Of a stretch of DNA of 24,147 nt, positions 10,356-24,147 are shown in pieces. The notes under the pieces were generated by a model that saw nothing but the letters and a program-made list of their open reading frames with translations, had not been told where the DNA came from and did no database searches. Location: positions 1 through 24,147 of IMG/VR virus record IMGVR_UViG_3300032288_006065. One strand, given 5' to 3'. Made by a program: the position numbers and the translations under genes. Each line of letters begins with the position of its first letter. Within the stretch, counting starts at the first letter, position 1. The DNA is from a virus.

Positions 10356-11840
10356 TTAGTCTTTCCAAAGTTCCATATCATCGTTGCGGCGTTGTTTTTC
10401 GCTACGATCGTCAAAAATATTGATGTTATCGTCGTCGGAGCCGTCTCCATCGTTGAAAAAACCAAATGGCATCACTTGTTCTTCAATTTTTCTTATTTGT
10501 TCTTCGTAAATACGTTGACGAACGTCGCTGTTGGTGTAATCTTTAAAGTAAGATTGTGTGGTGAGCCATCCAAACAGCACCAAAGTGCTGATCAAGTCGT
10601 CGTTGTAGCCTTCGTTTGCTTCGTAACCGGCTCCACGAGCCACAAATGTGCTAAATTCTGAAATTGTATCAAAATCTTGAATTATGAGTTTGTCGTTTTC
10701 GATCATATCTTTAAGCAAACTGCAGCCCATTTTTTTGATTTGATAGCTCATGCGCACACCCATCTGCACTTTACCGCTACCGAAACCACCGTCAGCCTTC
10801 TGACCGCGCTTGCCACGGTTGGATACGCTCAAAATGTTACCATATTCAAGTTCTTCGTGTAATATTTCGGCTACAGCTTGTCCAAGATCGTTGATTTCAA
10901 ACAAAGCCAATGCTTCGTTGTACATATCGCCTAGTTTTTTGATGTGATGCGGTACAACTTGATACGAAATGGTATTATTTTTGAATTTTGCCACTTGACG
11001 ATACGGCATTTTGGTGCAATCGATGATGCTTATCGCATGATAATCTTGTTCTTCGCCTCGAGATGTGTCGATACACATAGCATATATGTGATTTTTCTGT
11101 GGTGGTTCATAAATATCCAATCCTTCGGGGGTGGATGTTTGCGGAACTCCAAAAACCATGTTGGCTATTTTTGATGGAGTTATGAGTGTGTTTTCGCTAC
11201 CTACAAAGTCGCATAAATATTCCGTCCTCCACTGCGCTTCGCTAGTATTGGCTATTGTTTCTTGTTTGAATTTTTCATCGCGTCCTGGTACATCATACCA
11301 ATGTGCTTCAACTGGGACATATCCATTTTTACCGTTTTGAGCATTGGTCCAAGTTTTGTAAAAATGATTGAGACCTTTGGGTGTGCTGATCAAAATAGCT
11401 TTAGTGTTCTTACCCGAGCTGATGGTTGGATATACCGAACTGAAGAATTCTTCTGCCACACCATTGGGAACGTAAGCGTATTCGTCAAGCACGATGCAAT
11501 TCGAAATTTGTACATTATTTGCAATATATGAATGTGTATTTTCCACATTGATCAAATCATAAACATCTTGTTTCTCTTTTGAAATTTCTTTATGCAGTAA
11601 AACTATTTGATTGTCGTTGTGACTTAATACAGTATCATATAATTTTAATTCTTTGGCTGTTTTCCATCCTTCGGGAGTTTTTATTTTATGATCAAAAGTA
11701 CACTTTAAAAAAGACTCATCATCAAAATATAATTCAATTATTTTTTGATCTTTGGTTATCAGCAAGCCATCACTAGAACGATAAATACCATCACCACCGA
11801 GAACTTTTAAATTTGGTATTTCGATTAATTCTTGTTGCAT
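10356..11840 (-). CDS. 17: Terminase large subunit gp17, C-terminal part preceded by a C-intein
   Basis: A protein of 494 residues made of two parts. Residues 1-114 are the C-terminal piece of a split intein: block B 'CTFDHKIKTPEGW' with the TxxH motif (T48, H51), 'AKELKLYDTV', block F 'VYDLINVENTHSYIANN' (H103), and block G ending Ser113-Asn114. Residue 115 is Cys+1 of the C-extein. From there it is gp17: Walker B 'CIVLDEYAYVP' (D119-E120), 'STPKGLNHFYKTW' motif III region, and the RNase H-like packaging nuclease with Asp258 in 'CIDTSRGEEQDYHA', plus 'GYNDDLISTLVLFGWL' near the end. The acidic C-terminal tail is Asp-rich. Its ATG follows directly on the TAA of the upstream half and is in the same frame, so translation is probably by reinitiation; a weak GGGAAG sequence is the only candidate ribosome site. 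Trans-splicing to the upstream half would give a full motor subunit. Confidence 0.9.
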   Translation of the reverse strand: MQQELIEIPNLKVLGGDGIYRSSDGLLITKDQKIIELYFDDESFLKCTFDHKIKTPEGWKTAKELKLYDTVLSHNDNQIVLLHKEISKEKQDVYDLINVENTHSYIANNVQISNCIVLDEYAYVPNGVAEEFFSSVYPTISSGKNTKAILISTPKGLNHFYKTWTNAQNGKNGYVPVEAHWYDVPGRDEKFKQETIANTSEAQWRTEYLCDFVGSENTLITPSKIANMVFGVPQTSTPEGLDIYEPPQKNHIYAMCIDTSRGEEQDYHAISIIDCTKMPYRQVAKFKNNTISYQVVPHHIKKLGDMYNEALALFEINDLGQAVAEILHEELEYGNILSVSNRGKRGQKADGGFGSGKVQMGVRMSYQIKKMGCSLLKDMIENDKLIIQDFDTISEFSTFVARGAGYEANEGYNDDLISTLVLFGWLTTQSYFKDYTNSDVRQRIYEEQIRKIEEQVMPFGFFNDGDGSDDDNINIFDDRSEKQRRNDDMELWKD

Positions 11841-12650
11841 TTATTTTCTTCCCATCACAAATCCATCTGGAGCGTCTTCAGGTTTTACACGTATTATTTG
11901 TCCTGTTGTCCTATTAATAAACCATTTTAAATTGTAGTTAAGATTCTTTTTGCCTTTGTTCCATGCAACTCTACCTTTTGCGGCATCAGACATCTTCTTG
12001 CGTGATTCTTGACTTCTTTTCATGCCCCTATGTTTTTCGGCAGTCTTCATAATCTTGATAGGATTTTTATTAATTTTATCTATCCACTCTTTTGTTTTTT
12101 TGTGACCAAGCAAAGCTTTTGATATTTTTTCTCCGTGCGATTTAGGCATCTTTTTACCGATATGACGACCTTTATTTTTAGCGGAAATTATTTTCTTTGC
12201 TTGTTCTGATATTTTTTTACCTTTGTTTGAGTTAGATATTTTTTGTTTTGTTTCTTGCGAATGGTGTGATCCAGTTCTTACTTGTCGAATAGCCTCACCG
12301 TATTGTTCTTTTAATAATTCATATTGACGAGAAGACACTTTATAATATTTTTTGGCATGTCCATTAATCATTAAATTCCACGCAAGCACCATTTTAGCTT
12401 TTGCTTTTCCTGTCAAACATTTTACCAGCAAACGATGTACAATATAATGCTCTCGTGCTGTCAGATAAACTAGATTGGATGGATCGTCGCTCCCTCCTAA
12501 TGATCTTGGAGTTATGTGGTGCAATTCAGAATATCCATCTACGATATTTCTTTTTTGTGCAAACCGAATAATATTACAATACCAATTATAGTATTTGTTT
12601 GATAATGGTTTAAACTCGATTTCATTTTTACAATCTGGATGAGTTAGCAT
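11841..12650 (-). mobile_element. HNH/NUMOD3 homing endonuclease segment, possibly also made from an internal start
   Basis: This is the endonuclease part of the fused frame, counted from the in-frame ATG at 12650 (Met200). From here it would be a complete 269-residue HNH protein of the kind found free-standing in many T4-like phages: a WY..II..A helix, an HH-N-H-H nuclease core, NUMOD3 DNA-binding repeats and a Trp/Phe-containing 'GFVMGRK' tail. The likely function is cleavage of intein-free gp17 alleles so that the element is copied in. Whether it acts as a fusion to the N-intein or as a separate protein cannot be read from sequence. Confidence 0.7.
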
Positions 12651-13247
12651 ATCATTATTTATTAATTTTGAAATTTTGCCTATTTCAATTTTTTGCTGTT
12701 GTCCTTGATATACAATATCAACAACAGCATCTCCTGTAATGCAATTGTAACTGCCACCACGAACCGCACTCGACGAAGTAGCCGCAGAAATAATTTTGGA
12801 CCCGTTTTCCAATTGAACCGAAAACTTGTTCCATTCGACCACGCCTTGTTGCAACCAACGCGGCAAGTTTTCGTAGCTGGTTTTGAAACGATCCAGCAAT
12901 TCTTTGGCTGTGGTGCCTTTGTTGGCGAGTATTGCCACTCGAACGTTTGCATTGAAGAGACAATAATGCAACAAATAGCTTGTTACGGTAATGGATTTAC
13001 CGCTCTGTCTTGGAATTTTACATATGGTAAATCTGTTGTTGTGAACTGTTTCAACAATTCTTCGTTGAAACGGATACAGTTGAAACGGAACCAAACCTTG
13101 ATCTAGATTCACGACCTTGATGTATTTTTCCATAAAATACACCGGCTCTTCGGCGCATTTCAAGTATTCCTGAAGTTGTTCGGCTGTATAATTTACTTTT
13201 ACGTTTGTATTTTTAAGTAACGGATTGCCAAGATAGTTGTCACTCAT
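11841..13247 (-). CDS. 17: Terminase large subunit gp17 N-terminal part fused to N-intein and HNH homing endonuclease
   Basis: A protein of 468 residues. Residues 1-168 are the gp17 N-extein: 'PFQLYPFQRRIV' Q-motif region, Walker A 'CKIPRQSGKS' (76-85, K84), and 'SSSAVRGGSYN' just before the junction. Cys169 opens the N-intein 'CITGDAVVDIVYQGQQQKIEIG', which ends near residue 198. Then comes an HNH endonuclease: 'NKYYNWYCNIIRFAQKRN', 'ELHHITPRSLGGSDDPSNLVYLTAREHYIVHRLL' (H243, H244, N258, H267, H271), and several NUMOD3-like repeats ('SQETKQKISNSNKGKK', 'GEKISKALLGHKK', 'SQESRKKMSDAAKGR'). The C-terminus 'FINRTTGQIIRVKPEDAPDGFVMGRK' looks like a natural HNH protein end. The ATG overlaps the gp16 stop (ATGA). 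Alone this half cannot package DNA, because it lacks Walker B and the nuclease. Confidence 0.92.
   Translation of the reverse strand: MSDNYLGNPLLKNTNVKVNYTAEQLQEYLKCAEEPVYFMEKYIKVVNLDQGLVPFQLYPFQRRIVETVHNNRFTICKIPRQSGKSITVTSYLLHYCLFNANVRVAILANKGTTAKELLDRFKTSYENLPRWLQQGVVEWNKFSVQLENGSKIISAATSSSAVRGGSYNCITGDAVVDIVYQGQQQKIEIGKISKLINNDMLTHPDCKNEIEFKPLSNKYYNWYCNIIRFAQKRNIVDGYSELHHITPRSLGGSDDPSNLVYLTAREHYIVHRLLVKCLTGKAKAKMVLAWNLMINGHAKKYYKVSSRQYELLKEQYGEAIRQVRTGSHHSQETKQKISNSNKGKKISEQAKKIISAKNKGRHIGKKMPKSHGEKISKALLGHKKTKEWIDKINKNPIKIMKTAEKHRGMKRSQESRKKMSDAAKGRVAWNKGKKNLNYNLKWFINRTTGQIIRVKPEDAPDGFVMGRK
12656..12663 (-). promoter_or_regulatory. Possible late promoter box AATAAATA before the endonuclease internal ATG
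   Basis: AATAAATA lies 5 nt before the internal ATG at 12650, inside the N-intein codons. It could drive a separate HNH message, but the region is very AT-rich and the match may be chance. Confidence 0.25.
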
Positions 13248-16844: not shown

Positions 16845-17462
16845 TTACTCCGGCAATCCACCCGGTGGAAAGTAAGTCAACAACGGATCGCCGCCGACTA
16901 TTCGATTTCCAAGCGATGTGTCAACTTGGACCGTTCCTTCAAGATCCACTCCGAGTGCTGTTGTGTTGGCTTGTTGTTTTTGTGCGGTTGCACCTACAAA
17001 TACGGTGCTGTTTTTAAACACCGCAAAATTGCCGCTGGTCAACGAACCGGTTCCGCCTGCGTATCCTGTGACCGACGATTCGAAAAAACTTCCAATCGAA
17101 GCATCCGAAATGTAAAGTCCATACGCCTGACCCGTATAAGAACCGTAAACACCACCTTCTATTTGAGATTTATTTAAATTGAATGTAGAAGCATTTGAGC
17201 TTACGATTCCGTATCTTGTGTCAACTATTTTCGCATTTGACACATCAATATGACTTGTTTCAACTTGAAATCCACGAACGCAAGATATAACTTCAAACGA
17301 GCTTGCGGTGGATCCCGAAACTCCTTGACCGATAAGTTGGCTGTTGTTTCTGACTGTAAAACCAGAAACACTGGCATCTTTTACTAAAACCTTGTCGGTA
17401 AATCGTACAGTGCTTCTGCCTTCAGCATACACACCCGTTTTACAATTGTTAAAATTTGGCAT
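16845..17462 (-). CDS. Beta-helix protein continuing the tail fibre
   Basis: A protein of 205 residues, repetitive and beta-helical. Rungs of the form 'F..C..GVYAEGRSTVRF', 'VLVKDASVSGFTVRNNSQLIG', 'FEVISCVRGFQVETSHIDVSN', 'IVDTRYGIVSSNASTFNLNKSQIEG' and 'GLYISDASIGSFFESSVTGYAGG' are visible. The last rungs of the upstream fibre ('[33 protein letters not shown]') belong to the same pattern, and this frame is the same frame with one TAA between. It has TAAGG as a ribosome site, formed by that stop, 7 nt before the ATG. The C-terminus ends 'TYFPPGGLPE'. It may be a separate fibre subunit that docks on the upstream helix, or the distal half of one interrupted gene. Confidence 0.8.
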   Translation of the reverse strand: MPNFNNCKTGVYAEGRSTVRFTDKVLVKDASVSGFTVRNNSQLIGQGVSGSTASSFEVISCVRGFQVETSHIDVSNAKIVDTRYGIVSSNASTFNLNKSQIEGGVYGSYTGQAYGLYISDASIGSFFESSVTGYAGGTGSLTSGNFAVFKNSTVFVGATAQKQQANTTALGVDLEGTVQVDTSLGNRIVGGDPLLTYFPPGGLPE

Positions 17463-17471
17463 TTTTAAACC

Positions 17472-20027
<2,556 letters not shown>

Positions 20028-20037
20028 CTTTGTTTCC

Positions 20038-21165
20038 TTAACCTTCGCCGTTCATAAGTGCTTCTACCGCAAACTTATGATTGGCTTCGATGCGTTGTCT
20101 TTGATCTTCTGGGAATTTCTTTTCACCAAGTAAGCGATCACCAACAAGTTTTGCTTCTTTGTGGTGTCCACTCCAATATGCAGCAATGCAGAATTCATCA
20201 AGAATGCTCCACTCGTATATTGGTTGACTCACAAACAAAGCTCCTTCTGGCATGCGAAGCTTGAGAGCTTGTTTCGCAAAAATATAAGCTTGATCAAATC
20301 GACAGAACATTCTGCAAATGCGAGCAGCAGCCCAAAGTGATTCGGCACGCCAAGGATTGATTTGATATGCTTGAAAATAAACTTTGATGATATCATCGAT
20401 TGGATGATTCAAAATTTCTTTGATACGACCTACTTGAAACAAGCTATAGAAAACTTCTTCGTTCCATCCACCCAGTTCAGCACGCTTGAGATAAGCGTCA
20501 TGAGCTTTTTGCCACTGTTGGCTGTCGCGATACGATTGAGCAAGATAAAAGTGATAACGATTAAAATCTTTTTCATCGACTGGACCTTTAAGGGCTTCTT
20601 CGAAAGTTTCAGCATCGCGACCATATTTATCGGGAGTCTTGCTGCGTGCTCCGTCTTGAATTGGTCGGTTCAAGATACCTTTTGCAAAATCGCGTGATTC
20701 GATAGGATCATGGCAATCAACATATTCATGCAAAACGCCTCGATAGTAAAAACGCTTGCGGTTTGCTGTCAGCTGGGGACGGTGATACTTGATACCGCCA
20801 TAAAAAGCAAACACGTTGTAAAGATCGGTGGTGAGATTGTCTTTGAAACTTTCTGGATCAAAATTACCATCATATTCCATGATTTCATCTGCATCGATCA
20901 TGATCGTGTAGTCGCCCATTGGTCTAGCAGCTTCGAGAGCTTCGCTTCGACTTTCGCCGAAACCTTTCCATGTGCTTTGCACAAGCTTTCCTTGAATACC
21001 AACATTCTCAAAAAACTTTTCAATTTTTTCTTGAGTTCCATCGGTGCTGCCGGTATCGACGATGCACCAAGTGTCAATCAAAGGAAGCATCGAAGCCAAA
21101 CAGCGTTCAATCACATGCGCTTCATTTTTGACAATCATCGACAATACCAATTTATTCTTAGCCAT
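20038..21165 (-). CDS. Family 2 glycosyltransferase with C-terminal TPR-like helices
   Basis: A protein of 375 residues. A GT-A domain covers about 1-200: '[24 protein letters not shown]' (8-31), nucleotide-sugar motif 'VDTGSTDGT' (36-44) and the metal-binding DxD in '[12 protein letters not shown]' (D91, D93), followed by '[13 protein letters not shown]', typical of bacterial and phage GT2 proteins with this architecture. From about 214 on, paired helices such as '[28 protein letters not shown]' look like TPR repeats. It has no membrane segment, so it is a soluble enzyme acting in the infected cell. Donor and acceptor are unknown; its place between two fibre/baseplate genes suggests decoration of a virion protein. 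GAAAGGG is the ribosome site. Confidence 0.88.
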
Positions 21166-21181
21166 TATAACCCTTTCATAA

Positions 21182-21427
21182 TTAAGAAGATCTGCTGTTA
21201 TTTATTAGAATTTTCAACATGTCTTTTATATCGTTCATGTTGTTTTCTAATTTTTCAATGCGTTCGTTAATATCACCAATTCGAGATATATTTAGTTCTC
21301 TTTTCTGAGCCTCCAAAAAAGCTTTCTTTTGTGCCAAGCTTGTTGCGACGATAGCATTGCTGCTGGTGTCACGAACAAGACCCGGTTCGTTTTCAACTTT
21401 CAAATATTTTGGTTTATTTAAATTCAT
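21182..21427 (-). CDS. Small coiled-coil protein downstream of the DUF4815 gene
   Basis: A protein of 81 residues. The N-terminal 'KPKYLKVENEPGLVRDTSSNAIV' (5-27) resembles a short conserved segment I associate with small proteins of T4-like cyanophages. From residue 34 the sequence is a continuous helix with heptads ('INERIEKLENNMNDIKDMLKILI'), likely a coiled coil. Its ATG overlaps the DUF4815 stop (ATGA), so it is translationally coupled to it. Function unknown; a structural or assembly role with the upstream protein is plausible. Confidence 0.75.
   Translation of the reverse strand: MNLNKPKYLKVENEPGLVRDTSSNAIVATSLAQKKAFLEAQKRELNISRIGDINERIEKLENNMNDIKDMLKILINNSRSS
21199..21206 (-). promoter_or_regulatory. 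Possible late promoter box AATAAATA before the glycosyltransferase
   Basis: AATAAATA lies inside the last codons of the small coiled-coil gene, 33 nt upstream of the glycosyltransferase ATG, at the same spacing as the clear late promoters. The first base departs from TATAAATA. Confidence 0.45.
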
Positions 21428-24147
21428 GTTGCGATTACCTTGAAATCTTTGAACGCAGGAACAACAGTGTTGGTGTAGTCGCCGTACATAACAACTTTCA
21501 ACTGGAATTTTCTAAATTCTTCTTGACCGGTTATACCAGAAGTGCGAGCAGTTGATGTGCCGCCTCGAGTAAATCTTAAATCAACATAATCGTCTTCTCC
21601 GACCGAGAGATATTGAGAGGTTGTTCCATAAGAATTTGCATACGAAGGATGTATAATTAATTTTTCGTATGGGACATCGTCAAAACGGGTATTATCGGTC
21701 TTGGCTTGAGATTTCAAGTAAACACCAATATCGCTGCCACGAGGAAGTCTTGCAGTTAAATATACGTCAACATCTGTCGATTCAAAACCATCTTGAAGAT
21801 TTATTTGACGGCTGATATAACGCATCGGCGAAACATCACTGGCTGTTATACCTGCAACCGAAGCTAAAGATTCATATGTCTCTTGTGTAGCTTGATCGTT
21901 AAAATTCAAGATCAAGTTCTGGATATAAAGACCGCTTACGCGTTGTAAATCGAGAGCTGGTGTAACAGAATCATCGTCGGTATCAAGAGTAATAGAAGCG
22001 GTTATTGTATCGGTGCCAGCATCTTTGATATTCTTTTTGGAAGAGAAAATTAAATTTTCATTTGGAAGAATAGTAATAGATCCTAAACCGTCACCTTCGA
22101 AATCTACAGCAGCGGAAACGGTTGTTGACGGAGGTGCAATGTATGTGCTGTTAAGACGGAACACATTTGCGCCATTGGTTATTCCGGATATTCCAGAATC
22201 AAAATTTGTTTCGGTGAAATTGAAATAAACTGTACCACCGGAAGTATCAAACACACACTTGTGTATTGTAAATTTCAAATCGAGAAGTTGTTCGGCAGTC
22301 CACGTGCTCGAGTTTTGCGATTTGAAGAAAGAGCCACCATACGGCTGAGTAGCGATAATTTCATCGGTTATGGTGTCGTTTTGACCGACTTCGCTAACGA
22401 ATACTTCATATTCGTTGCTGTTGCTCAAAAGAACCATGGAATATTCGCCGGGTTGCAAATAAATCGGACTGTCAAACTGGAAAGTGGTTGAAGAACTACC
22501 ATCTTCAGAAATATTAACATCCGATGGTAATTTTATAACCTCGCTGAACGGAATGATTATTCCCGAGCTTGGATAACCGTTTACTGCGGGTCTCAACTGC
22601 AAAGTTATTGGAAGATTCGAAGACTTGGTTTTGAAGAACACATCAACTTTGCTTATGTACAAACCATTTGGATTTGCAACAGGATCCACAAGGAATGTTT
22701 GAGCAACAGGATCCACATACTCCGAGCGTGTGTCTGTAACTATCGTGTTGTTGAATATTCTGTCTTCGGTTACGGATTCTCTTCTGATAACCAGATTTCT
22801 TGTGGAAAGAATAGTATTTTCTTCGGTCTGTACCAAACCCTGTGCGCGGAAAGAATCTTCGGCAGTGGTTGTACAATTAGAAAGTATATTCGAAGAGTCG
22901 TCGATCAATCGCAACAGACGATCGCCGGTTCGGAAAGTCGCAGAGGGCACACCAAATGTGATTCCTTGAGAATATCCAACTCTTCCGTTAACGTCTGTGA
23001 TTATTGAACCACCGGTAACACCATCAACGCGTACGTATTGTGATATATCTTGATTGTCGAAGAATGGGTATACTCTAACATTCGGGCGCATACCGTCAGC
23101 TTTTACGTTGATGTCGATGCTGCGCATAAATGGTACAATACTCACATCTACGATTCGACTGCCGATATTTCGTGTGGTGGTTTCTGGTACCAATCGCGTA
23201 CGAATACCGGTTCTCGATTGAGCAGATTCTTGTGTTGCTTCCAAACCATAGTCTACACGCTGAACCTTTTTGTTTGTTGTGCCGGGTTTAATAACGCTAT
23301 GTGGTGGTGTTCTGCCAATTTCACGCCAAACACCGGTTGCAACTGGCGTTCCGGTCCAAGTGGTTTCCCAGTTGTTCCACACAGTTCCAAAGTCAACTTC
23401 CGCTAAATCTCCAACCCCATCGTTCTGACCGTTAACGTTCACAACAACGTCCGGAAGTGTTTGCGTATCGATCCAGTCGTCCGACTGAGGAATCATCGTC
23501 AAACGTCCATTGAAGTTTGTCACATCAAATGGATTGACGTTGATAGATTTTGAAGCAAATCGTTGCTGTATGAAAACATCGGTTGTGTAGTTGCAAGTAA
23601 GCAAACCGTTTGTGTTGAATGTCAATCCCGAAGGAATGCTGCCGCTCAATCCAAAATCCACATACTTTGTGGTGAAGCGTGGTCTGGCTTCCAAGCGAAC
23701 AGGATCAATTGCACAAAGATGATCTCGATTCAAATAATCTGAATTGGTTCTTGAATCAAAATTATCTACAAATATACCATTTTTAAATTTATTGAGACCG
23801 TTTTGATCTTGAATTTCTAAAGTTTTGGCTTCTTTTTCCGCCAAGCTCAAGGTAGTATAATATTCCAAACGATCGATTCTCTTTTCGAGAGAACCAATAT
23901 CGCGCATTGTGTATCTGCGATTCTTGACGATAAATTTGGTTGTATCTAAGTTAGATTTGGTGTACGGAAGGAACGTTATAGATGCCAAAGTCATAGCATC
24001 CGATATATCTTGTGGTTCGGGTGCTTGATCGTTATCGGATATTCCTTGCACGATTCTGAATTCTTTATCGCGTGTGAGCACAACCTTGTCGGTTCTTGGT
24101 TGATAGTAACTCCAAGCCATATCAAAAGAATTGCCAATCAGGTTGCA
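21424..24147 (-). CDS. DUF4815-type baseplate/tail structural protein, 5' end outside the window
   Basis: An ATG at 24120 would give 898 residues, but the frame stays open for nine more codons to the window edge (C-N-L-I-G-N-S-F-D before Met-Ala-Trp). 'WSYYQPRTDKVVLTRDKEF' is an internal segment in cyanophage DUF4815 proteins, so the gene very probably starts upstream. Other family-like segments are 'ITFLPYTKSNLDTTKFIVKNRRYTMRDIGSLEKRIDRLEYYTTLSLAEKEA' (about residues 50-100 from that Met) and 'FKNGIFVDNF'. Later come a long beta-rich part with 'VDPVAQTFLVDP' (typical of myovirus fibre/baseplate proteins), then repeated beta-sandwich modules. It stands in the slot of T4 genes 9-11 and is likely a baseplate component connecting fibres. 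Confidence 0.85.
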   Translation of the reverse strand, partial: CNLIGNSFDMAWSYYQPRTDKVVLTRDKEFRIVQGISDNDQAPEPQDISDAMTLASITFLPYTKSNLDTTKFIVKNRRYTMRDIGSLEKRIDRLEYYTTLSLAEKEAKTLEIQDQNGLNKFKNGIFVDNFDSRTNSDYLNRDHLCAIDPVRLEARPRFTTKYVDFGLSGSIPSGLTFNTNGLLTCNYTTDVFIQQRFASKSINVNPFDVTNFNGRLTMIPQSDDWIDTQTLPDVVVNVNGQNDGVGDLAEVDFGTVWNNWETTWTGTPVATGVWREIGRTPPHSVIKPGTTNKKVQRVDYGLEATQESAQSRTGIRTRLVPETTTRNIGSRIVDVSIVPFMRSIDINVKADGMRPNVRVYPFFDNQDISQYVRVDGVTGGSIITDVNGRVGYSQGITFGVPSATFRTGDRLLRLIDDSSNILSNCTTTAEDSFRAQGLVQTEENTILSTRNLVIRRESVTEDRIFNNTIVTDTRSEYVDPVAQTFLVDPVANPNGLYISKVDVFFKTKSSNLPITLQLRPAVNGYPSSGIIIPFSEVIKLPSDVNISEDGSSSTTFQFDSPIYLQPGEYSMVLLSNSNEYEVFVSEVGQNDTITDEIIATQPYGGSFFKSQNSSTWTAEQLLDLKFTIHKCVFDTSGGTVYFNFTETNFDSGISGITNGANVFRLNSTYIAPPSTTVSAAVDFEGDGLGSITILPNENLIFSSKKNIKDAGTDTITASITLDTDDDSVTPALDLQRVSGLYIQNLILNFNDQATQETYESLASVAGITASDVSPMRYISRQINLQDGFESTDVDVYLTARLPRGSDIGVYLKSQAKTDNTRFDDVPYEKLIIHPSYANSYGTTSQYLSVGEDDYVDLRFTRGGTSTARTSGITGQEEFRKFQLKVVMYGDYTNTVVPAFKDFKVIAT

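What the first reader, a model, noticed from the sequence alone, without database searches (positions are those of the whole stretch)
20038..21165. Glycosyltransferase embedded in the fibre/baseplate cluster
A GT2 enzyme with DxD and TPR-like repeats lies between the DUF4815 gene and the collar fibre, probably under its own late promoter. Late timing and neighbours point to glycosylation of virion proteins (fibre Ser/Thr in the GPTGST stalk is an attractive acceptor) rather than DNA or host envelope change. The acceptor is speculative.
Basis: inference. Interest (0 to 1): 0.5.

Follow-up and report, generated by a model that had tools for sequence, protein, structure and literature searches.

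The report
Phage enzyme sugar-coating collagen-like fibres
A T4-like phage carries, right beside its collagen-like fibre gene, a sugar-transferring enzyme whose bacterial relatives also tend to sit beside collagen-like genes, so the virus probably decorates its own fibre with sugars.

Summary
Confirmed: window 20038-21165, minus strand, encodes a 375-aa family-2 glycosyltransferase (GT-A domain, invariant DxD) with a C-terminal TPR-like superhelix (AlphaFold pLDDT 92). It lies 10 nt upstream of a collar/collagen fibre gene in a same-strand structural block. Best structural matches are the peptide S-glycosyltransferases SunS/ThuS; the only PDB sequence match is GmaR.

In 40 bacterial genomes with a relative, 1266 of 2920 (Gly-X-Thr)4 DNA matches fall inside the GT loci (5.8 expected). 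In 99 Mesorhizobium genomes, 36 of 36 with a strong GT match have such arrays, against 6 of 63 others. In gp13-anchored T4-like loci with at least 4 kb upstream, 8 of 9 with the GT and 0 of 30 without it have a collagen run.

Most likely it works like C. difficile SgtA on BclA3, putting sugar on collagen-stalk threonines. Against: 18 of 62 informative phage loci lack a stalk in the adjacent gene; 39 of 80 bacterial loci lack an array within the fetched stretch; no activity, donor or glycan is shown. An own late promoter is not conserved.

The parts
20038..21165 (-). glycosyltransferase gene, 375 aa
   Evidence: ORF; Pfam GT2; PHROG_13126 E 1.8e-25
20641..21165 (-). GT-A catalytic domain, about residues 1-175 (boundary approximate)
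   Evidence: AlphaFold secondary structure; SunS match from residue 1
20887..20895 (-). DxD motif D91-A92-D93
   Evidence: D91 and D93 identical in 107 of 107 homologues
20725..20730 (-). H146-E147, presumed metal/catalytic site (role inferred)
   Evidence: H146 in 107 of 107, E147 in 106 of 107
20041..20640 (-). helical TPR-like domain, about residues 176-375, presumed acceptor-peptide groove (inferred)
   Evidence: helices 180-371; TPR matches Z 15-17
17472..20027 (-). collar/collagen fibre, 851 aa, starts 10 nt after the GT; likely acceptor protein
   Evidence: Pfam Collar 25.4 bits and Collagen 31.4 bits, both above cutoff
18564..18752 (-). Gly-X-Y stalk, residues 426-488: 21 triplets, 14 with Thr in Y; proposed acceptor
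16845..17462 (-). 205-aa NosD-like protein, probably the distal part of the fibre split off in this clade
   Evidence: relatives outside the clade mostly have one ORF of about 1050-1340 aa there
21182..21427 (-). 81-aa structural protein (PHROG_473) ending 16 nt before the GT start
21424..24120 (-). DUF4815 protein, incomplete at the window edge
   Evidence: Pfam; close relatives 1676-1678 aa
21199..21206 (-). AATAAATA, weak late-promoter-like motif
   Evidence: one mismatch; not conserved in relatives

Best explanation
The gene encodes a cytoplasmic, metal-dependent GT-A peptide glycosyltransferase. Its TPR superhelix holds an unfolded or nascent Gly-X-Thr chain while the catalytic domain transfers a sugar (probably GlcNAc from UDP-GlcNAc, by analogy with SgtA) to Thr, perhaps also Ser. 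It decorates the collagen-like stalk of the collar fibre encoded next door, or of another collagen-bearing protein of the same phage, before assembly. Shown by computation: fold, motifs, operon-like position, and association of this enzyme family with Gly-X-Thr proteins in bacteria and phages. Inferred: activity, donor, linkage, exact acceptor, timing and benefit (stalk stiffness, protease resistance or masking).
For: Bacterial relatives (80 loci, 40-47% identity): 45 of 825 ORFs are collagen-like, and after the GT itself the commonest neighbour family is collagen-like (35 of 80 loci); Thr fills Y in 2166 of 2994 triplets. Background in 40 of those genomes: 38 have (GXT)4; 1266 of 2920 matches lie in the GT loci against 5.8 expected under uniform placement; 25 of 40 loci hold one. 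Mesorhizobium: 36 of 36 GT-positive and 6 of 63 other genomes have arrays. T4-like phages with >=4 kb upstream of gp13: 8 of 9 GT-positive, 0 of 30 GT-negative have a collagen run. In 44 of 62 informative viral loci the gene directly downstream has a run of >=6 triplets. Isolate Tunturi_5: GT about 4 kb from a tail fibre full of GPT/GAT triplets. Fold: SunS Z 21.2, 272 residues, 2.9 A; sequence: GmaR E 4.5e-9. SgtA, a GT+TPR enzyme encoded directly upstream of bclA3, puts O-GlcNAc on Thr of collagen repeats.
Against: 18 of 62 informative viral GT loci have no run of >=6 triplets in the adjacent gene. 39 of 80 bacterial loci have no (GXT)4 in the fetched stretch, including the closest lake Methylococcaceae L068, L070, L071, and 2 of 40 genomes have none at all. 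105 of 117 viral stretches with GXT arrays show no GT of this family, and one Lys-type stretch (L349) has it. Two megaphage regions and PaBG have a relative but no collagen nearby. Relatedness inflates the presence/absence tests. No biochemistry; kinship to SgtA itself not tested.
Confidence: 0.68

Rival explanations
1. It modifies the host envelope (LPS O-chain or core) to alter the receptor or block superinfection.
For: This is the published reading of the glycosyltransferases (GT8 above all) found between VrlC and gp14 in pelagimyophages (passages of PMC7029224); PHROG files the family under moron/host takeover.
Against: Does not explain the tie to Gly-X-Thr proteins; relatives occur in Gram-positive Streptomyces and Hoyosella, some with arrays nearby; best solved-structure matches are peptide transferases, though wall-polymer enzymes TarP/TarS/RmlT follow.
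Confidence: 0.14
2. It glycosylates a virion protein, but at a site other than a collagen stalk (collar-domain protein, DUF4815 protein).
For: The short collar-domain protein stays next to the GT in 15 loci where the stalk is absent there; Ser/Thr are frequent in the fibre outside the stalk.
Against: Bacterial relatives neighbour Gly-X-Thr proteins; one of the 15 carries Thr-rich collagen ORFs elsewhere in its record.
Confidence: 0.1
3. It acts on a collagen-like surface protein of the host.
For: Bacterial relatives sit beside bacterial collagen-like genes.
Against: The phage has its own stalk next to the gene, and GT-less relatives lack such a stalk in the searched stretch (0 of 30). The host is unknown.
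Confidence: 0.04
4. It glucosylates phage DNA.
For: The phage is T4-like.
Against: GT-A fold with TPR domain and peptide-transferase matches; T4 DNA glucosyltransferases are GT-B (recalled); the gene lies in the structural module.
Confidence: 0.02

Closest known systems
SgtA-BclA3 of Clostridioides difficile (PMC7157674: abstract, passages and section 3.3 seen)
   Same: 358-aa GT-A plus C-terminal TPR enzyme encoded directly upstream of a collagen-repeat protein rich in Gly-Pro-Thr; here 375 aa, same order, stalk rich in Gly-X-Thr
   Different: Spore-surface protein of a bacterium, not a phage fibre; activity shown there, none here; sequence kinship not tested
SunS/ThuS peptide S-glycosyltransferases (7msp, 7msn, 7msk)
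   Same: Best fold match over most of the protein, Z 20.7-21.2
   Different: 13-18% identity in the alignments; 18 bits against a cutoff of 350 for TIGR04195
GmaR of Listeria (22ao); its role as flagellin O-GlcNAc transferase is recalled
   Same: Only PDB sequence match at E<=0.01, GT domain residues 9-123
   Different: Only the GT domain compared; setting is a phage structural module
Virion glycosylation of mycobacteriophages (Freeman et al. 2023; not held, known from a citing passage in PMC12619734)
   Same: Glycans on phage virion proteins
   Different: C-termini of capsid and tail tube subunits, not a collagen-like stalk
Mimiviral collagen glucosyltransferase (PMC11838735: abstract start in a search listing)
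   Same: Virus-encoded enzyme acting on collagen
   Different: Eukaryotic giant virus; acts on hydroxylysine-linked sugar (recalled)

Membership tests
Glycosyltransferase family 2 (Pfam PF00535/PF13704) | score above the curated cutoff | tested here: met
   45.8 vs 23.3 and 32.1 vs 27.5 bits; both hit in 27 of 27 sampled phage members
Glycosyltransferase family 2 (Pfam PF00535/PF13704) | GT-A fold with DxD | tested here: met
   fold matches; D91/D93 in 107 of 107
SgtA-type collagen O-GlcNAc transferase | GT-A plus C-terminal TPR architecture | tested here: met
   model and fold matches; SgtA description
SgtA-type collagen O-GlcNAc transferase | gene directly upstream of a Gly-X-Thr collagen-like gene | tested here: met
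   10 nt to the fibre; 14 of 21 triplets end in Thr
SgtA-type collagen O-GlcNAc transferase | sequence homology to SgtA | not tested
   SgtA sequence not fetched
SgtA-type collagen O-GlcNAc transferase | Mn-dependent transfer of GlcNAc to Thr/Ser of collagen peptides | not testable with these tools
   needs an enzyme assay
SunS peptide S-glycosyltransferase (TIGR04195) | score above the NCBIfam cutoff | tested here: not met
   18 bits vs 350
SunS peptide S-glycosyltransferase (TIGR04195) | same fold (GT-A plus helical repeats) | tested here: met
   Z 21.2, rmsd 2.9, 272 aligned
SunS peptide S-glycosyltransferase (TIGR04195) | glycocin precursor peptide gene nearby | not tested
   no search made for small precursor genes
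PHROG_13126 (annotated beta-1,4-glycosyltransferase) | profile match over most of the protein | tested here: met
   E 1.8e-25, residues 6-360 on positions 3-348 of 394; the linkage named is annotation only
GmaR flagellin transferase | GT-domain sequence similarity | tested here: met
   E 4.5e-9 over residues 9-123
GmaR flagellin transferase | flagellar gene context and repressor binding | not tested
   no search for it; the window genes identified are phage structural

The most novel reading that the evidence does not exclude
A dedicated collagen-glycosylation pair (a GT2-TPR enzyme plus a Gly-X-Thr protein) recurs in several bacterial phyla and has entered phages more than once: these T4-like phages, jumbo phages such as Tunturi_5 and LR756502, and phages whose more distant GT2 lies next to GXT-rich ORFs. 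Such phages display a glycosylated collagen-like fibre made with their own enzyme.
Probability: 0.5. Interest if true: 0.75.

Novelty: new variant of a known kind. Interest (0 to 1): 0.62.

Why it matters
Glycosyltransferases in phage host-recognition islands have been read as LPS- or DNA-modifying. If this family instead coats collagen-like fibres, those annotations change, phage fibres join the prokaryotic O-glycoproteins, and a GT2-TPR gene beside a Gly-X-Thr gene becomes a predictive rule in bacteria too. Tunturi_5, a named isolate with a named host, makes it directly testable.

Tried and rejected
Own late promoter: scanned, not conserved. SunS membership: rejected on score. PHROG's 'beta-1,4' label: annotation only. 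The porphobilinogen deaminase hit on the 81-aa gene is below its cutoff. Collagen near the relatives in two megaphage regions (L149, L150) and PaBG (L152): looked for, not found. Literature searches: none of the listed titles or abstract starts ties a phage GT to a collagen-like fibre; most subscription papers are not held, and the lists were capped. Freeman et al. 2023 is not held.

Correction made on review: the Lys-type set excluded four stretches that match both patterns; with them it is 1 of 95 (L349 has the GT), not 0 of 91, and Fisher p goes from 0.0014 to 0.007. I lowered the novel case from 0.55 to 0.5 for this, since three of its phage examples outside the T4-like clade rest on that test and no tree of the distant GT2s was made.

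Rows dropped before counts: 4 of 66 viral loci (L008, L023, L030, L045), whose downstream fibre is cut by the contig end, leave 62. In one search, 44 of 83 loci with under 4 kb upstream are outside the contingency (39 without GT or collagen, 4 collagen without GT in range, 1 GT without collagen); L035, returned, was not put in; at least L157, L160, L164 and L165 lie on contigs already seen; the 30 GT-less loci are 26 viral contigs and 4 cyanophages that I picked, and a GT outside the searched stretch would be missed. Whole-genome background: 40 of 80 bacterial loci, mostly the best-scoring. Mesorhizobium: the split into 36 (N-terminal match at E <= 2.4e-36) and 63 (27 weak, 36 none) was made by hand; 22 of the 36 carry a more diverged GT (33-37% to the query). 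One search uses stretches with a run of >=8 triplets: 117 of 120 and 91 of 116; only 80 rows of each scan were printed. Alignment A1 holds the window and 26 of 66 viral GTs. Part was cut from view; its tallies are.

Full report
OBSERVATION. Pfam and PHROG give a family-2 glycosyltransferase (27 of 27 sampled phage members). Pfam sees the TPR region only weakly, but the AlphaFold model from 27 phage sequences (pLDDT 92.2, pTM 0.84) has a GT-A domain followed by a helical superhelix; VIA-align gives SunS Z 21.2 (272 residues, 2.9 A) and isolated TPR domains Z about 15-17 for residues ~232-374. D91, D93, T38, G39, S40, D42 and H146 are identical in 107 of 107 phage and bacterial sequences.

SETTING. 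The identified structural genes of the window run on the minus strand in T4/cyanophage order: DUF4815, an 81-aa structural protein, the GT, a collar/collagen fibre in two ORFs, a 157-aa ORF, gp13, gp14, gp15, small terminase-like ORF, terminase, sheath, tube, portal, capsid (some names by position and relatives only). Gaps around the GT are 16 and 10 nt. Four named cyanophages with 37-39% identical gp14 have one 6-8-kb 'structural protein' gene in this place, and no GT or run of >=8 triplets in the 13 kb upstream of gp13. An own late promoter is not conserved; transcription with the neighbours is the simpler reading (inference).

RELATIVES IN PHAGES. 66 viral loci have the GT at 57-96% identity. 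Among genes compared in 20 or more loci the GT is the best conserved: median identity to the window 69%, against 55% for gp13 and the terminase C-part, 48% gp14, 42% gp15 and sheath; portal (6 loci) 57%. The 81-aa, NosD and terminase-N medians (72, 89, 61%) come from 9, 7 and 5 loci. 27 sampled phage GTs form one clade (SH-aLRT 100, quick method) among bacterial sequences; one acquisition is the simplest history. In named phage records 12 of 50,697 match, among them Tunturi_5 and uncultured megaphages of 635-735 kb.

THE ACCEPTOR TEST. The stalk of the window's fibre has 21 triplets, 14 with Thr in Y. If it is the acceptor, the enzyme family should travel with Gly-X-Thr proteins. (a) 80 bacterial loci (40-47% identity) hold 825 ORFs, 45 collagen-like; after the GT itself the commonest neighbour family is collagen-like, in 35 of 80 loci; Y is Thr in 2166 of 2994 triplets. 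(b) In 40 of those genomes searched whole, 38 hold (GXT)4; 1266 of 2920 matches lie inside the GT loci against 5.8 for uniform placement; 25 of 40 loci, and 41 of all 80, hold one. (c) In 99 Mesorhizobium genomes, 36 of 36 with a strong match have arrays, 6 of 63 others do, each with 8 matches or fewer; 27 of the 63 have only weak hits, mostly to the GT2 part, so the tie is not to GT2 at large. (d) With at least 4 kb upstream of gp13, 8 of 9 GT-positive and 0 of 30 GT-negative loci have a run of >=8 triplets. (e) In reverse, 12 of 117 viral stretches with GXT arrays have a GT of this family; 1 of 95 with Gly-X-Lys arrays, the one being shared with the first set. In 11 of these 12 the GT lies within 2.7 kb of a collagen ORF; 9 of 12 score only 72-106 bits, i.e. 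are distant GT2s, two of them with an N-terminal extension. Tests (c) and (d) are inflated by relatedness; (e) is modest.

EXCEPTIONS. Of 62 informative viral loci, 44 have a run of >=6 triplets in the gene directly downstream. In 15 that gene is a short (about 262-268 aa) collar-type protein (Pfam Collar tested on one; L034 read), in 2 a 449-aa collar-type protein, and in 1 gp13 follows directly. Of the 15, one 177-kb record holds two collagen ORFs far from the GT, one Thr-rich (24, 20 and 6 triplets), a second (66 kb) a 10-triplet run in another fibre-sized ORF, and L028 and L034 runs of 8 and 10 triplets upstream; the rest were not examined beyond their loci, and one 89-kb record has no (GXT)3. 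Among bacteria, the lake Methylococcaceae L068, L070 and L071 have no (GXT)4 within 6 kb but 7, 31 and 49 elsewhere. Two megaphage regions and PaBG have no collagen run nearby; a third megaphage (LR756502) and Tunturi_5 do.

MECHANISM. SgtA, a 358-aa GT-A+TPR enzyme encoded directly upstream of bclA3, adds beta-O-GlcNAc to Thr, and Ser if offered, of collagen-repeat peptides with Mn and UDP-GlcNAc (PMC7157674). Architecture, gene order and acceptor type match; kinship to SgtA was not tested. I propose that the phage enzyme glycosylates collagen-stalk threonines during fibre synthesis. Donor, linkage, timing and benefit are inferences.

ALTERNATIVES. Envelope modification is the published reading for GTs in the pelagimyophage host-recognition cluster and remains possible, but does not explain the tie to Gly-X-Thr proteins or the Gram-positive members. 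A non-stalk virion acceptor, a host collagen-like acceptor and DNA are less likely.

NOVELTY. Each element has a precedent: SgtA on collagen repeats, virion glycosylation in mycobacteriophages (citing passage), a mimiviral collagen glucosyltransferase (listing). The searches named under Tried and rejected showed no paper joining them for tailed phages, so I call it a new variant of a known kind.

Noticed in passing
window 10356-13247, minus strand: The terminase large subunit is in two abutting ORFs: the first ends with intein-like start, HNH and NUMOD3 motifs, the second begins with an intein-C-like stretch (sub-cutoff Intein_splicing/HINT hits) before the rest of the terminase: looks like a split-intein ('fractured') terminase with a homing endonuclease.
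   Followed up: partly
window 16845-20027, minus strand: The fibre is two ORFs (851 + 205 aa) in this window and close relatives such as L002-L004, where other relatives mostly have one ORF of about 1050-1340 aa.
   Followed up: partly
window 20038-21165: The GT is better conserved than gp13, gp14, gp15, sheath and terminase C-part across the viral loci, unusual for a supposed accessory gene.
   Followed up: partly
L249, L292, L309, L350, L358, L362, L364: A more distant, about 355-365-aa GT2 type lies 0-2.7 kb from GXT-rich ORFs in other viral contigs: perhaps an independent version of the same pairing.
   Followed up: no
L288, L323: The GT match there is in 533-537-aa ORFs whose N-terminus looks like a methyltransferase (by eye).
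   Followed up: no
L084:6239-9043: In Mesorhizobium the GT is fused to a further C-terminal domain (934 aa in all) that matches separately in other strains.
   Followed up: no
L058:1754-2920: In this viral contig the GT is split into two ORFs (234 and 143 aa), a frameshift or assembly error.
   Followed up: no
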